From the NCBI RefSeq assembly GCF_000732725.1, contig NZ_JPNB01000001.1, positions 2,108,001 to 2,172,000 of the forward strand: a stretch of DNA of 64,000 nucleotides, read 5' to 3'. Shown here in pieces: positions 5,324 to 56,680 of this stretch. Below the pieces are notes generated by a model. The model did not search any database. It was not told the origin of the DNA and was given only the letters and a program-made list of their open reading frames with translations. A program made the translations under genes and the position numbers. Numbering within the stretch: position 1 is the first letter of the stretch; each line of letters opens with the position of its first letter. The stretch is from Kineothrix alysoides. Lineage in GTDB: Bacteria > Bacillota > Clostridia > Lachnospirales > Lachnospiraceae.

Positions 5324-8005
5324 TTACTGCCGGTACAGCCCATCGATTTCTCCCGCCGTATCCTCCGGCAGAGAATCAAAAAGATAATTCTTCTCCCTTG
5401 GCTGCTTATTCGAATAATCCTCTTTTATTTTCTTATTTGCCGCCTCTATCTCTTCCCTCAGCTCTCTGGCAGAGAACAGGTCACAGCCCTGTCCCCTGAT
5501 AATTATCTGCTCCAGCCCATCCGAGGTCGCCACCGTTACCTTGTATTTTCTCCCGTTCTCATGGGCGAATTTCTCGATATACATGTCCGCCGTCTCGGCC
5601 TCCTTCGTATAGACCACATGGATATTATGATAATCCAGTATCTCCGTATCATGCCCTTTTACCCGATAAGCGTCGAACACTACAATGAGCTTGCATCGCT
5701 TGATCGCCTGATAATTACAGAGAATGTCCATCAGCTTCCCTCTGGCGCCATCGATACTCACCATAGCCAATTCCTTCAGATCCTCCCACGCAAATATCAC
5801 ATTATAGCCGTCTACCAATAAATATTCCTCTTTCAGCTCCGGCTTCTTCCATTCGTAGACCGCAGGAGACGAAGACACTGAAGGCTTCCTTTCTTCACGT
5901 TTCATACTTCCGCGATAGCCCCGGCGCACATCATCCTTGCCCTTTTTGTTGGCGTAAAGCACCCTCTCTAAGATAGCGTCCACTTCCTCCGTTCCTATCC
6001 ATCGTTCCTCTTTTTCTGAAGACGTCGCTTTTCTTTCTCTGCCTTCGCTCTCCTCTTCCTTCTCCGGACTTGACAGGCGGCTTTCCACATGCATGTATTC
6101 CTTAACCTTATCCCAGCTCACCGTAAATCCTGCTCCATGAGCACAGAATACGGAGCCTGTAGGATTCTCAATATCCTTCTCCGAATCATATCCTGCTTTT
6201 TCTATTATTTCCTCCGCATTGTGGCAGGGGGCATAGCCCTTTACCGTACAGAATAGTCTTCCGCAGCCCTTGGTATAGGCAGTTACTTCTTTGGAATAGT
6301 CCTGCATCGTAATGACAGGGGCATATCCGGTCAAAACTGCACTCTCCCCTTCGGCATGAGGCGCCCCAAAGGTTCCACACATTTTCTCGATATCTGTCAT
6401 CGCTCGTCCTACCAGCTTTTCCGGCACTTCCAGACGAAATTCATAATAAGGTTCCAGCAGTACCGACTGTGCCTCCTTTAACCCCTGACGCAAAGCCCGG
6501 TAGGTAGCCTGCCTGAAATCGCCGCCCTCCGTATGCTTTTGATGTGCCCTTCCTGCAACCAGTGTAATCTTCATATCGGTGATTCCCGCACCGATCAATA
6601 CTCCCTTATGCTCCTTCTCTTCCAGGTGCGTCAATACTAAACGCTGCCAGTTCCTATCCAATAAATCCTCGCTGCAAGATACCTCAAAGCTAAGCCCGCT
6701 TCCGGCTTGAGCAGGCTCTAACAGCAAATGAACTTCCGCATAATGCCTCAATGGCTCGAAATGCCCTACTCCTTCCACACGGTTTGCAATGGTTTCTTTA
6801 TACACGATGTTTCCCGTACCGAATTCGACTGTTACTCCAAAACGTTCCTTAATCAGGCTTTTTAAGATTTCGGTCTGTACCTCTCCCATAAGCTTAGCCT
6901 GTATTTCCTTTAAAGTCTCGTCAAAGGCAATATGAAGCTGAGGGTCCTCTTCCTCCAATTGACGAAGCTTCGGCAGCATTACCGTCGCATCGCAGTCCCC
7001 CGGCAAATCAATTCGGTAGGTAAGCACCGGCTCTAACACAGGCTGAGCGGAAGACTCCTCGGCCCCCAGGCCTTCACCCGGGCGCGTCTTGCTAAGACCG
7101 GTTACCGCACAGATGCAACCCGCCTGCACCTCCTCCGAAGTTCTATACTTTTCGCCGGAATAAATGCGGATCTGATTGACCTTTTCCTCCCAGATCTCTC
7201 CATTCAGATATCCGGAAATCACCTCTCTTGTACGCAGGTTTCCTCCCGTAAGTTTCATAAAGGTAAGCCGATTGCCCTGCTCGTCCCGGGCAATCTTAAA
7301 AACCTTCGCCCCAAAAGTGTCAGAGTACCTTGGCCGATCTGTATAGGTTTCTATTCCCTGCAGGAAGCTCTCTACTCCATCCAGCTTCAGCGCCGAGCCA
7401 AAATAGCAGGGAAATAAATTCCGCTGTAAAATGAGTCCCCTTATTTCCTCCGTCTCCACCCTTCCCATCTCCAGAAATTGATTCAGCGCCTTCTCATCGG
7501 TCATAGCTATATTTTCATAAAACGCTTCTGTCTCCTCTTCAAAACAGATACACCCCTCCTCCAGGCGGCTCTTAAGCTCCGCCAGAAGTGCTGCCTTATC
7601 CGTTCCATTCTGATCCATCTTATTGATGAACAAAAATGTGGGAATCTGATATTTCTTAAGCAGGCGCCATAAAGTCTGCGTATGTCCCTGCACGCCGTCT
7701 GCTCCGCTTATGACGAGTATCGCATAATCCAGCACTTGTAATGTCCGCTCCATCTCCGCTGAAAAGTCTACATGCCCCGGCGTATCCAGAAGAGTGAGCC
7801 GCATATCCCCAAACTCAAGCACCGCCTGTTTGGAAAATATAGTAATCCCCCGCTCCCGCTCCAAAAAATAGGTGTCCAAAAATGCATCTTTGTTATCCAC
7901 CCTTCCCATCTTTCTGATACCACCGCTTTCGTATAACAGCGCCTCCGATAAAGTTGTCTTTCCGGCATCCACATGTGCCAATATTCCAATTACCAATTCC
8001 TTCAT
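5324..8005 (-). CDS. TetM/EF-G-like ribosomal GTPase fused to a YacP/Rae1-type NYN nuclease domain
   Basis: An 893-residue fusion. Residues 1 to about 630 form a complete translational GTPase of the TetM/TetO ribosomal-protection type. G1 is AHVDAGKTT, the switch-I threonine is in RERGITIF, G3 is DTPGHVDF and G4 is NKMD. EF-G-like domains II-V follow, ending in a segment with SVFCAHGAGF and VSWDKV. A charged Glu/Lys/Arg linker (about 640-720) leads to a YacP-like NYN/PIN domain (about 725-885), with LLVDGYNVI, LIVVFDAY, KEAETADMYIEK and VATSDGLEQ carrying the acidic catalytic positions. In Bacillus subtilis YacP (Rae1) is a ribosome-associated mRNA endonuclease. TetM is about 640 residues, so the C-terminal 250 are extra. 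It is a single-gene transcript with its own terminator. Tetracycline protection cannot be inferred. Confidence 0.85.
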   Translation of the reverse strand: MKELVIGILAHVDAGKTTLSEALLYESGGIRKMGRVDNKDAFLDTYFLERERGITIFSKQAVLEFGDMRLTLLDTPGHVDFSAEMERTLQVLDYAILVISGADGVQGHTQTLWRLLKKYQIPTFLFINKMDQNGTDKAALLAELKSRLEEGCICFEEETEAFYENIAMTDEKALNQFLEMGRVETEEIRGLILQRNLFPCYFGSALKLDGVESFLQGIETYTDRPRYSDTFGAKVFKIARDEQGNRLTFMKLTGGNLRTREVISGYLNGEIWEEKVNQIRIYSGEKYRTSEEVQAGCICAVTGLSKTRPGEGLGAEESSAQPVLEPVLTYRIDLPGDCDATVMLPKLRQLEEEDPQLHIAFDETLKEIQAKLMGEVQTEILKSLIKERFGVTVEFGTGNIVYKETIANRVEGVGHFEPLRHYAEVHLLLEPAQAGSGLSFEVSCSEDLLDRNWQRLVLTHLEEKEHKGVLIGAGITDMKITLVAGRAHQKHTEGGDFRQATYRALRQGLKEAQSVLLEPYYEFRLEVPEKLVGRAMTDIEKMCGTFGAPHAEGESAVLTGYAPVITMQDYSKEVTAYTKGCGRLFCTVKGYAPCHNAEEIIEKAGYDSEKDIENPTGSVFCAHGAGFTVSWDKVKEYMHVESRLSSPEKEEESEGRERKATSSEKEERWIGTEEVDAILERVLYANKKGKDDVRRGYRGSMKREERKPSVSSSPAVYEWKKPELKEEYLLVDGYNVIFAWEDLKELAMVSIDGARGKLMDILCNYQAIKRCKLIVVFDAYRVKGHDTEILDYHNIHVVYTKEAETADMYIEKFAHENGRKYKVTVATSDGLEQIIIRGQGCDLFSARELREEIEAANKKIKEDYSNKQPREKNYLFDSLPEDTAGEIDGLYRQ

Positions 8006-8046
8006 TACGTTTTTCCGTTCTTTAATCTATTGAGATATTATTTGTC

Positions 8047-8100
8047 TGAATAAAGGTATACTTCGCACAGCTTTTGTCCCGCATGTGTAGCTGCGCATCC
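8047..8100. repeat. Dispersed intergenic repeat, short copy
   Basis: This segment aligns with 31270-31356 if about 30 bp are deleted from the middle: both begin TGAAyAAArGTrTrCTTCGC, both continue with GCTTTTG and both end GCGCATCCAT. A third relative lies at 52360-52435. All three are between genes. Confidence 0.6.
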
Positions 8101-8133
8101 ATATTTTATGTAACAGAAATACTTTCCTGTTAC

Positions 8134-8178
8134 ATAAAAAAGAACTTATATATCACGTAAATAGTAACATATAAGTTC
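8134..8178 (-). terminator. Terminator of the CofE-like gene
   Basis: The perfect 10-bp stem GAACTTATAT (8142-8151) / ATATAAGTTC (8169-8178), read on the minus strand, is followed by a run of six T residues. It is about 180 bp past the stop of the CofE-like gene. Confidence 0.7.
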
Positions 8179-8214
8179 CTTATTGTAAAAATTATATCCA
8201 CTTCATAAATATAT

Positions 8215-8241
8215 GTTACTGTTCACTCCGTTATCAGTAAC
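8215..8241. repeat. Dispersed hairpin repeat, copy 1
   Basis: GTTACTG/CAGTAAC stem around TTCACTCCGTTAT. A near-identical 27-bp copy is at 56746-56772, beside the chemoreceptor stop, with two mismatches. Both lie between genes. Confidence 0.55.
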
Positions 8242-8357
8242 GCATGATTTCTGCAATGCAAAATTTTTGCATTTAAATTCGCCTGCGAAGCAGAAATCAT
8301 CTCTTGCATCACGTTCTTACGTAGCTTAACAGCAACCTATTTCCATCAGCTTATATC

Positions 8358-56426: not shown

Positions 56427-56496
56427 AGAAAAGACATAGTAAGACCATCCCTTATCTATTCCAGACCAATTACTCGTGGCTGTACTATACTTCATT

Positions 56497-56680
56497 CAAG
56501 GCAGGTCTCCTGACTCAAAGATCATCGTATACGGCAGCCTTCCCAATTGCTATCAGTGGCTGTTTGCCGTAACTCCCTTTTCACAGTGACGAGTTCGTAC
56601 AGGATTTTCACCTGTTTCCCTTTTCATCGAAATGAGCCTCCGCTCTTTCGACACCTTAAATGGATGAAGTTTTGTTCACG
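56497..56680 (-). promoter_or_regulatory. Cobalamin riboswitch of the cobalamin operon
   Basis: On the minus strand the B12 box GTCAGGAGACCTGCC (56500-56514) is near the 3' end. Upstream are the other conserved parts: AAAAGGGAAACAGGTGAAAA and AATCCTGTACGAACTCGTCA (paired core), GTGAAAAGGGAG and CAGCCACTGATAGCAATTGG. This is the standard adenosylcobalamin aptamer layout. High cobalamin should stabilise it and favour the downstream terminator, repressing the operon. Confidence 0.93.

What the first reader, a model, noticed from the sequence alone, without database searches (positions are those of the whole stretch)
5324..8005. Ribosomal-protection GTPase fused to a Rae1-type mRNase domain
The N-terminal 630 residues are a complete TetM/EF-G-like GTPase with all G motifs. 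The C-terminal 160 residues align in motif order with YacP/Rae1 (LLVDGYNVI, VVFDAY, KEAETAD, VATSDGLEQ). Established knowledge: TetM-type proteins bind the ribosomal A site and B. subtilis Rae1 cleaves mRNA in the A site of translating ribosomes. Inference: the chain could be a self-delivering rescue or quality-control factor that docks on stalled ribosomes by its GTPase and cuts the mRNA with its tail. I do not know of an experimental description of this fusion.
Basis: partly seen in the sequence, partly recalled or inferred. Interest (0 to 1): 0.78.

Follow-up and report, generated by a model that had tools for sequence, protein, structure and literature searches.

The report
GTPase-fused Rae1 mRNA-cutting enzyme
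Many Clostridia carry a single protein that joins a ribosome-binding GTPase to an enzyme related to one that cuts messenger RNA on the ribosome; it seems to stand in for the ordinary, separate cutting enzyme, which makes a GTPase-assisted way of clearing ribosomes testable.

Summary
ORF 5324-8005 (-) encodes 893 aa: an EF-G/Tet-like GTPase (5-596), a clade-specific extension (594-640), an 88-aa mostly disordered linker and a Rae1/YacP NYN domain (729-887, E=1.7e-52). The architecture is in print: Atkinson 2015 noted it in ten Clostridiales species and suggested antibiotic resistance. I saw no experiment on it.

New here: (1) The fusion is the genome's only Rae1. In 245 genomes of the class, 88 plus this one carry it, 70 have stand-alone Rae1, 2 are split over contig edges, none has both above the Pfam cut-off. 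Here the usual yacP slot between rlmB and sigH holds a GDSL-lipase gene. (2) The GTPase is not TetM-type: the Pro509 position is Lys in 64 of 66 fusions, and the tet-protection cut-off is missed. (3) All four NYN aspartates are invariant, while non-catalytic Rae1 residues, including the C-terminal tail, are relaxed in fusions.

Against: a NYN-less GTPase of L. salivarius falls inside the fused clade.

Best reading: a ribosome-dependent mRNase whose GTPase took over docking, probably by sequential hand-over, since GTPase and Rae1 would compete for one A site. Inferred, not shown.

The parts
5324..8005 (-). Whole gene, 893-aa GTPase-linker-NYN fusion
7340..7993 (-). GTPase (G) domain, residues 5-222; G1 AHVDAGKT, G2 RGIT, G3 DTPGH, G4 NKMD
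   Evidence: Pfam GTP_EFTU 3.2e-50; motif conservation in 66 fusions
7076..7309 (-). Domain II, residues 233-310 (under Pfam cut-off)
   Evidence: strands in the model
6818..7033 (-). Domain III, residues 325-396
6467..6811 (-). Domain IV, residues 399-513
6512..6544 (-). Domain IV tip loop III, residues 488-498 HQKHTEGGDFR; TetM-type rows have YSPVSTP[AS]DFR here, and the Pro509 position is Lys490
6218..6463 (-). Domain V, residues 515-596
6086..6226 (-). Clade-specific extension, residues 594-640 (CHN..EE.I...GYD...D.EN...SVFC..G.GF.V.W..V..YMH), also in unfused sister GTPases, mostly gaps in the TetM-type rows
5822..6085 (-). Linker, residues 641-728, pLDDT under 50 for 645-723; 62-164 aa in 66 fusions
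5948..6001 (-). Conserved short motif inside the linker, residues 669-686 (W-I-x-x-E-E-[IVL]-[DE]-x-I-...-T-[FY]-x-A-N in many)
   Evidence: E674 57 of 62, I678 57 of 62; Thr at 682 in 49 of 62, not in the window
5345..5821 (-). Rae1/YacP NYN nuclease domain, residues 729-887; Asp732, Asp778, Asp807, Asp829 invariant

Best explanation
The gene encodes this organism's Rae1: a ribosome-dependent mRNA endonuclease that carries its own translational GTPase. Shown by sequence: intact GTPase, intact NYN active site, long tether predicted disordered, no other Rae1 in the genome, and mutual exclusion with the stand-alone gene across the class sample. Inferred: the EF-G-shaped part recognises a ribosome with a vacant A site (paused or stalled) and probes it with a domain IV tip that differs from TetM's; GTP hydrolysis releases it; the tethered NYN domain, held at high local concentration, then enters the A site and cuts the exposed codon. 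The truncated complex would be cleared by tmRNA, which this genome has. The GTPase would thus have taken over docking work that stand-alone Rae1 does with its own surface, which would explain why non-catalytic Rae1 residues, including the C-terminal tail, are relaxed in fusions while the active site is not.
For: One NYN_YacP in the genome. Class sample of 245 genomes (own included): 88 fused + own, 70 stand-alone, 2 split over contig edges (G329, G372), 0 with both above cut-off; second hits in G285, G350 and G390 score about 21 bits against 24.6, and G282 has two fused hits. Phylum sample of 199: own and 11 others fused of 109 with a match, none with a second match. Both states occur inside families f1, f23, f24 and f28, in f28 inside one genus, so the switch probably happened more than once. 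Stand-alone yacP has rlmB and/or sigH beside it in 27 of 27 fetched loci outside the family and rlmB in 6 of 9 inside it; this genome has cysS-mrnC-rlmB-[GDSL lipase]-sigH. Four catalytic Asp invariant in 66 of 66, and in 36 stand-alone and 120 fused rows. The Pfam match reaches profile position 159 or later in 69 of 70 stand-alone but 30 of 82 fused; Arg at window position 843 in 35 of 36 stand-alone, 36 of 120 fused; tail Arg (891) in 33 of 36 against 38 of 120. B. subtilis R166P, in that tail, was among suppressors treated as loss of function (PMC6613710 passages; tail alignment). tmRNA present. Of 15 family genomes without NYN none has a GTPase of this clade.
Against: No biochemical data. 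A NYN-less 644-aa GTPase of Ligilactobacillus salivarius (L201) falls inside the fused GTPase clade (SH-aLRT 98), so a GTPase of this clade can exist alone (ancestral or after loss, undecided); none of the 33 listed L. salivarius plasmid records has an NYN hit. 3 of 9 family genomes with stand-alone NYN have no clade GTPase and in one of the other six it carries a stop; 6 of 12 class genomes with the unfused sister GTPase have no NYN. Tet-type domain IV and Rae1 would compete for one A site. In the NYN trees fused rows are not one clean clade (4 changes; 2 changes and 0% of 200 bootstrap trees with one group), though one clade is not rejected (p-AU 0.353). Relaxed tail residues could also mean a changed function.
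Confidence: 0.55

Rival explanations
1. Tethered but independent: the NYN domain acts just as stand-alone Rae1 does, and the GTPase has its own job (for example dislodging something from the A site or helping translocation); the fusion only keeps the two at one ribosome or in equal amounts.
For: Long flexible linker; stand-alone NYN without the clade GTPase in 3 of 9 family genomes; unfused sister GTPase without NYN in 6 of 12 class genomes; a NYN-less GTPase inside the fused clade in L. salivarius.
Against: Non-catalytic Rae1 residues and the C-terminal tail are relaxed in the fused form; among 85 class genomes with a fused-type GTPase hit (640 bits or more) the only one without any NYN, G280 (65% complete), has the gene cut at a contig edge.
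Confidence: 0.27
2. Antibiotic-resistance factor: a Tet ribosomal protection protein that gained an RNase, giving a new mode of drug resistance (the 2015 suggestion).
For: General Tet/EF-G similarity: TetO and TetM are the best solved-structure hits; the proposal in PMC4342817 (passage); two plasmid records carry the fusion (Monoglobus 518 kb; Agathobacter rectalis 252 kb, annotated TetM/W/O/S family) and 33 L. salivarius plasmid rows a NYN-less relative at 50-52%.
Against: Pro509 position is Lys in 64 of 66 where TetM's proline sits in the drug site (PMC8161019 passage); 447 bits against the 775 cut-off of tet_protect; outside the TetM-type rows; named Tet proteins on plasmids (TetM, TetO, TetB(P)) are only 31-34% identical; present in most genera sampled of its family, usually once per genome; five fused genomes also carry a TetM-type gene (the one scanned, from G197, is Tet(M)).
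Confidence: 0.1
3. Toxin or phage-defence effector: a ribosome-targeted mRNase switched on by infection or stress.
For: A-site mRNA cutting is also the way of RelE-type toxins (PMC12320835 passage).
Against: No PADLOC family of note (only GajA, E=0.0092); no conserved neighbour or antitoxin (largest neighbour cluster in 12 of 69 loci); core-like distribution.
Confidence: 0.04

Closest known systems
Rae1/YacP endoribonuclease (B. subtilis; PF05991; PDB 5mq8, 5mq9)
   Same: Same domain and active-site aspartates; best fold match; the only copy in the genome.
   Different: Fused behind a translational GTPase; not in the rlmB-yacP-sigH operon; tail and the Arg at window position 843 relaxed.
Tet-NYN fusions noted by Atkinson 2015 (PMC4342817; passages read)
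   Same: Same architecture; this gene is, as far as described there, a member.
   Different: The paper counts ten Clostridiales species and suggests drug resistance; here the form is in most sampled genera of the family, exclusive with stand-alone Rae1 and outside the TetM-type rows.
TetM/TetO/TetB(P) ribosomal protection proteins
   Same: EF-G-like five-domain plan, 31-34% identity.
   Different: For TetM-type rows, loop III, extension after domain V, place in the tree and curated score all differ; TetB(P) was compared by identity only.
Unfused sister GTPases (640-671 aa; L113-L117, L145-L149, L161-L163)
   Same: Same loop III HxKHTxGGDFR in 13 of 13 and same extension; 12 of 13 in a neighbouring clade, L149 unplaced.
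   Different: No NYN domain; function untested.

Membership tests
Rae1/YacP (PF05991) | Profile match above curated cut-off | tested here: met
   178.2 bits against 24.6
Rae1/YacP (PF05991) | Conserved catalytic acidic residues | tested here: met
   D732, D778, D807, D829 in 66 of 66; E802 in 65 of 66
Rae1/YacP (PF05991) | NYN/PIN fold of the B. subtilis crystal structure | tested here: met
   Foldseek 5mq9_A E=2.1e-12, TM 0.71/0.75; rmsd 11.3, so a loose superposition
Rae1/YacP (PF05991) | Stand-alone protein of about 170 aa in the rlmB-sigH operon | tested here: not met
   Fused; the slot in this genome holds a GDSL-lipase gene
Rae1/YacP (PF05991) | Complete C-terminal tail | tested here: inconclusive
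   Window matches 1-161 of 166 but without the W-R-[RK] motif; 30 of 82 fusions reach position 159 or later
Rae1/YacP (PF05991) | Translation-dependent A-site cleavage of mRNA | not testable with these tools
   Needs biochemistry
Tet ribosomal protection protein | EF-G-like domains G, II-V with intact G motifs | tested here: met
   (domain II under its cut-off)
Tet ribosomal protection protein | NCBIfam tet_protect equivalog cut-off | tested here: not met
   447 against 775; a control Tet(M), L155, scores 883
Tet ribosomal protection protein | Loop III proline (Pro509 of TetM) in the drug site | tested here: not met
   Lys at position 490 in 64 of 66
Tet ribosomal protection protein | Groups with TetM-type proteins in a tree | tested here: not met
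   Separate 50-row clade, SH-aLRT 99; quick tree, three TetM-type rows and one EF-G row on a very long branch (same split)
Tet ribosomal protection protein | Confers tetracycline resistance | not testable with these tools
   Needs a susceptibility test

The most novel reading that the evidence does not exclude
A GTP-timed ribosome quality-control nuclease: the GTPase samples ribosomes for an A site that stays empty, and only its GTP-dependent departure lets the tethered NYN domain enter the same A site and cut, so that hydrolysis acts as a timer separating pausing from stalling. It would be the only ribosome nuclease known to me with its own translational GTPase, and would add to the still incomplete list of enzymes that prepare stalled ribosomes for tmRNA.
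Probability: 0.28. Interest if true: 0.86.

Novelty: new variant of a known kind. Interest (0 to 1): 0.6.

Why it matters
[quoted passage not shown] Here nature has joined such an enzyme to a ribosome-entering GTPase, and the joined form and the separate one exclude each other, which makes 'how does Rae1 reach the A site' directly testable. It also warns about labels: the fusion on an Agathobacter rectalis plasmid record is annotated as a TetM/TetW/TetO/TetS family tetracycline resistance protein.

Tried and rejected
Rejected: chance ORF or mis-assembly (65 of 73 related loci full length); frameshift join (none in the window gene). Fission of the fusion as the source of the family's stand-alone genes: the first tree nested them inside the fused rows, but 6 of 9 sit beside rlmB and the later tree does not reject a fused clade, so I read them as the ancestral state; not proven. 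Operon partners: none conserved. A regulatory leader: the 350-bp upstream stretch of the window is absent in the nearest relative, where the genes nearly abut; Rfam at gathering scores finds nothing there. Defence: PADLOC gave nothing of note. The unfused sister as the known TetB(P): not supported; TetB(P) rows are 33-34% identical to the window GTPase, sister rows 44-50%.

The best-60 list shows Monoglobus and A. rectalis (fused), 33 L. salivarius rows and others. The L. salivarius row inside the fused clade lowered the best explanation from 0.58 to 0.55 and the novel reading from 0.30 to 0.28, and raised the independent-parts rival from 0.24 to 0.27.

Rows dropped: alignment A1 used 62 of 66 fused rows (L054, L060, L071, L096 left out, long linkers). 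NYN tree: 97 rows, fused thinned to every second plus the window. NYN tree: 73 rows, fused thinned to every third plus named ones, and eight rows left out as long or awkward branches (F_L158, F_L160, S_L175, S_L177, S_L179, S_L180, S_L181, S_L182). GTPase trees: fused rows thinned by about half; L157 dropped because the script picked the wrong ORF (its gene has an internal stop); also L160. One search left out G372, G363, G200, G288, G369, G219, G329 and G230 (broken or contig-edge frames). One search counted G372 as stand-alone (71); I count it as split over contigs because its fused-type GTPase lies on another contig. The 120 fused rows hold 111 different sequences.

Full report
What is there. 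The ORF at 5324..8005 (-) is intact, 893 aa, ATG start. Pfam places G, III, IV and V domains of the EF-G type within residues 5-596 and NYN_YacP at 729-887 with E=1.7e-52; domain II matches just under its cut-off. AlphaFold2 on 62 aligned fusions gives mean pLDDT 80.5; residues 645-723 lie under 50, NYN blocks mostly 72-90 up to about residue 830 and partly 50-70 in the tail. The full model's best 50 Foldseek hits are EF-G and EF-2 family chains; a model of residues 724-893 (pLDDT 86.5) has three hits at E <= 0.001, all B. subtilis Rae1 chains.

Prior art. Atkinson 2015 (PMC4342817; [quoted passage not shown] Three multi-term searches brought up no other paper on such a fusion in the listings I saw: 20 of 512 listed; 11 of 11; 4 of 4. 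The key Rae1 papers (Leroy 2017, Condon 2018, Deves 2023, Gilet 2025) and the TetM/TetO structure papers (Arenz 2015, Donhofer 2012, Li 2013) are not held, so an earlier discussion of this fusion in them cannot be excluded. What I say of Rae1 comes from passages in PMC10100781, PMC6613710, PMC11780869 and PMC12320835.

It is the genome's Rae1. G000 (4.68 Mb, 3 contigs) holds one NYN_YacP, the fusion. In its family 135 of 150 genomes (own included, from 150 genera) have a match. The open frame is at least 840 aa in 119 (118 typed rows plus own), 174-184 aa in 8 and in between in 8; of the 30 loci fetched, 27 show the GTPase in line with the NYN, in one of them (L017) in two overlapping frames. 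In the class, of 245 genomes, 161 have NYN: 88 fused plus own, 70 stand-alone, 2 split over contig edges, and none with both above cut-off. Both states occur inside families f1, f23, f24 and f28, so the switch probably happened more than once. In a 199-genome phylum sample, own and 11 others of 109 with a match are fused, 9 of them outside the class; GTPase and NYN hits lie side by side in these.

The vacated slot. Of 27 fetched stand-alone loci outside the family, all have rlmB and/or sigH beside yacP, 24 both; inside the family 6 of 9 have cysS, mrnC and rlmB next to it, three have none of these in the stretch taken. In this genome cysS, mrnC (an RNase III domain protein) and rlmB are followed by a GDSL-lipase gene of 619 aa and then a sigma-70-type gene; the names mrnC and sigH are mine from order and domains. 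Six of the nine family genomes with stand-alone NYN also carry an unfused sister GTPase elsewhere, one of them with a stop inside; the 15 family genomes with no NYN have none. This looks like a pre-fusion state (two separate genes), the fused state, and joint loss.

Not a tetracycline protection protein by the tests at hand. Fused and unfused members share loop III and an extension (594-640) that is mostly gaps in TetM-type rows. Lys stands at the TetM Pro509 position in 64 of 66; that proline lies in the drug site and touches C1054 (PMC8161019, passage). The protein scores 447 bits against the 775 cut-off of the curated tet-protection family, the control Tet(M) L155 883. In the tree, TetM-type and EF-G rows lie outside; fused rows are one clade (SH-aLRT 98). 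Among 72,556 plasmid records none matches the GTPase at 60% or more; the best 60 rows hold Monoglobus (58.9%, 518 kb) and Agathobacter rectalis (57.0%, 252 kb), both fused, 33 L. salivarius rows at 50-52%, three further relatives at 43-49%, and then TetB(P), TetO and TetM rows at 31-34%. Five fused genomes also have a separate TetM-type gene.

A result against a strict link. The L. salivarius gene (L201, 644 aa, on megaplasmid pMP118 of UCC118) has no NYN, a deviating loop III (SNVHTVGGDFR, Val at the Pro509 position) and falls inside the fused GTPase clade, in an unresolved place (SH-aLRT 98). None of the 23 plasmid records with an NYN hit is a Ligilactobacillus. Whether this is loss of the NYN or a pre-fusion line is undecided.

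Catalysis kept, docking surface relaxed. D732, D778, D807 and D829 are invariant in 66 of 66 and in 36 stand-alone and 120 fused rows. In contrast the Pfam match reaches position 159 or later in 69 of 70 stand-alone but 30 of 82 fused; Arg at window position 843 stands in 35 of 36 stand-alone and 36 of 120 fused (Leu in 72); the tail Arg at 891 in 33 of 36 against 38 of 120. The tail corresponds to B. subtilis W164-R165-R166: R166P came up among suppressors treated as loss of function, and W164L is the mutant of entry 5mq9. I infer that stand-alone Rae1 uses this surface on the ribosome and that the GTPase took over that work. A changed substrate is the alternative.

Mechanism. Shown: the parts, their conservation, exclusivity, and tmRNA in the genome. 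Inferred: GTP-dependent binding to ribosomes with an empty A site; release; entry of NYN on its tether (62-164 aa in 66 proteins); cut; tmRNA clearance. Docking and cutting at once is unlikely if, as described, both parts use the A site; hence a hand-over. A conserved motif in the linker (669-686) may bind a partner and deserves its own test.

Verdict. The organism is probably a Lachnospiraceae (inferred from named relatives such as Eisenbergiella tayi, 67%).

Noticed in passing
window 5948-6001 (-), residues 669-686: A conserved short motif, with a helix in the model at low confidence, sits in the otherwise disordered linker of the fusions; a divergent version (KELEAIM.REFG) occurs in L082 and L097. 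No known match recalled.
   Followed up: partly
window 8006-8357: About 350 bp between the fusion gene and the upstream F420-ligase-like gene, with a terminator-like hairpin at 8139-8181 (-); in the nearest relative L032 the two genes nearly abut, so this stretch looks inserted.
   Followed up: partly
window 56483-56673 (-): Cobalamin riboswitch (RF00174, 122.1 bits).
   Followed up: no
L200 1601-3460 (-) of the window's own genome: A 619-aa GDSL-lipase gene (PF13472) occupies the place between rlmB and sigH where yacP lies in genomes with stand-alone Rae1.
   Followed up: partly
L201 2986-4920 (L. salivarius pMP118) and plasmid hits H110-H142: A NYN-less 644-aa relative inside the fused GTPase clade, mostly annotated TetM/TetW/TetO/TetS family resistance, on L. 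salivarius plasmids; loop III deviates. Loss of the NYN or a pre-fusion line is undecided.
   Followed up: partly
L037 (Desulfosporosinus lacus record) and G395, G399, G453, G486, G491, G514, G525, G544, G554: The fusion also occurs outside the window's class (the nine G handles) and in a record named Desulfosporosinus lacus, which suggests horizontal spread or a deeper origin.
   Followed up: partly
H26, H27: Two unannotated 'Bacteriophage sp.' records match the NYN domain at 65-71% over about 120 aa; host DNA or a phage copy was not decided.
   Followed up: no
L158 (G380): A very divergent fusion (long branches in both kinds of tree) that may be an independent joining event.
   Followed up: no
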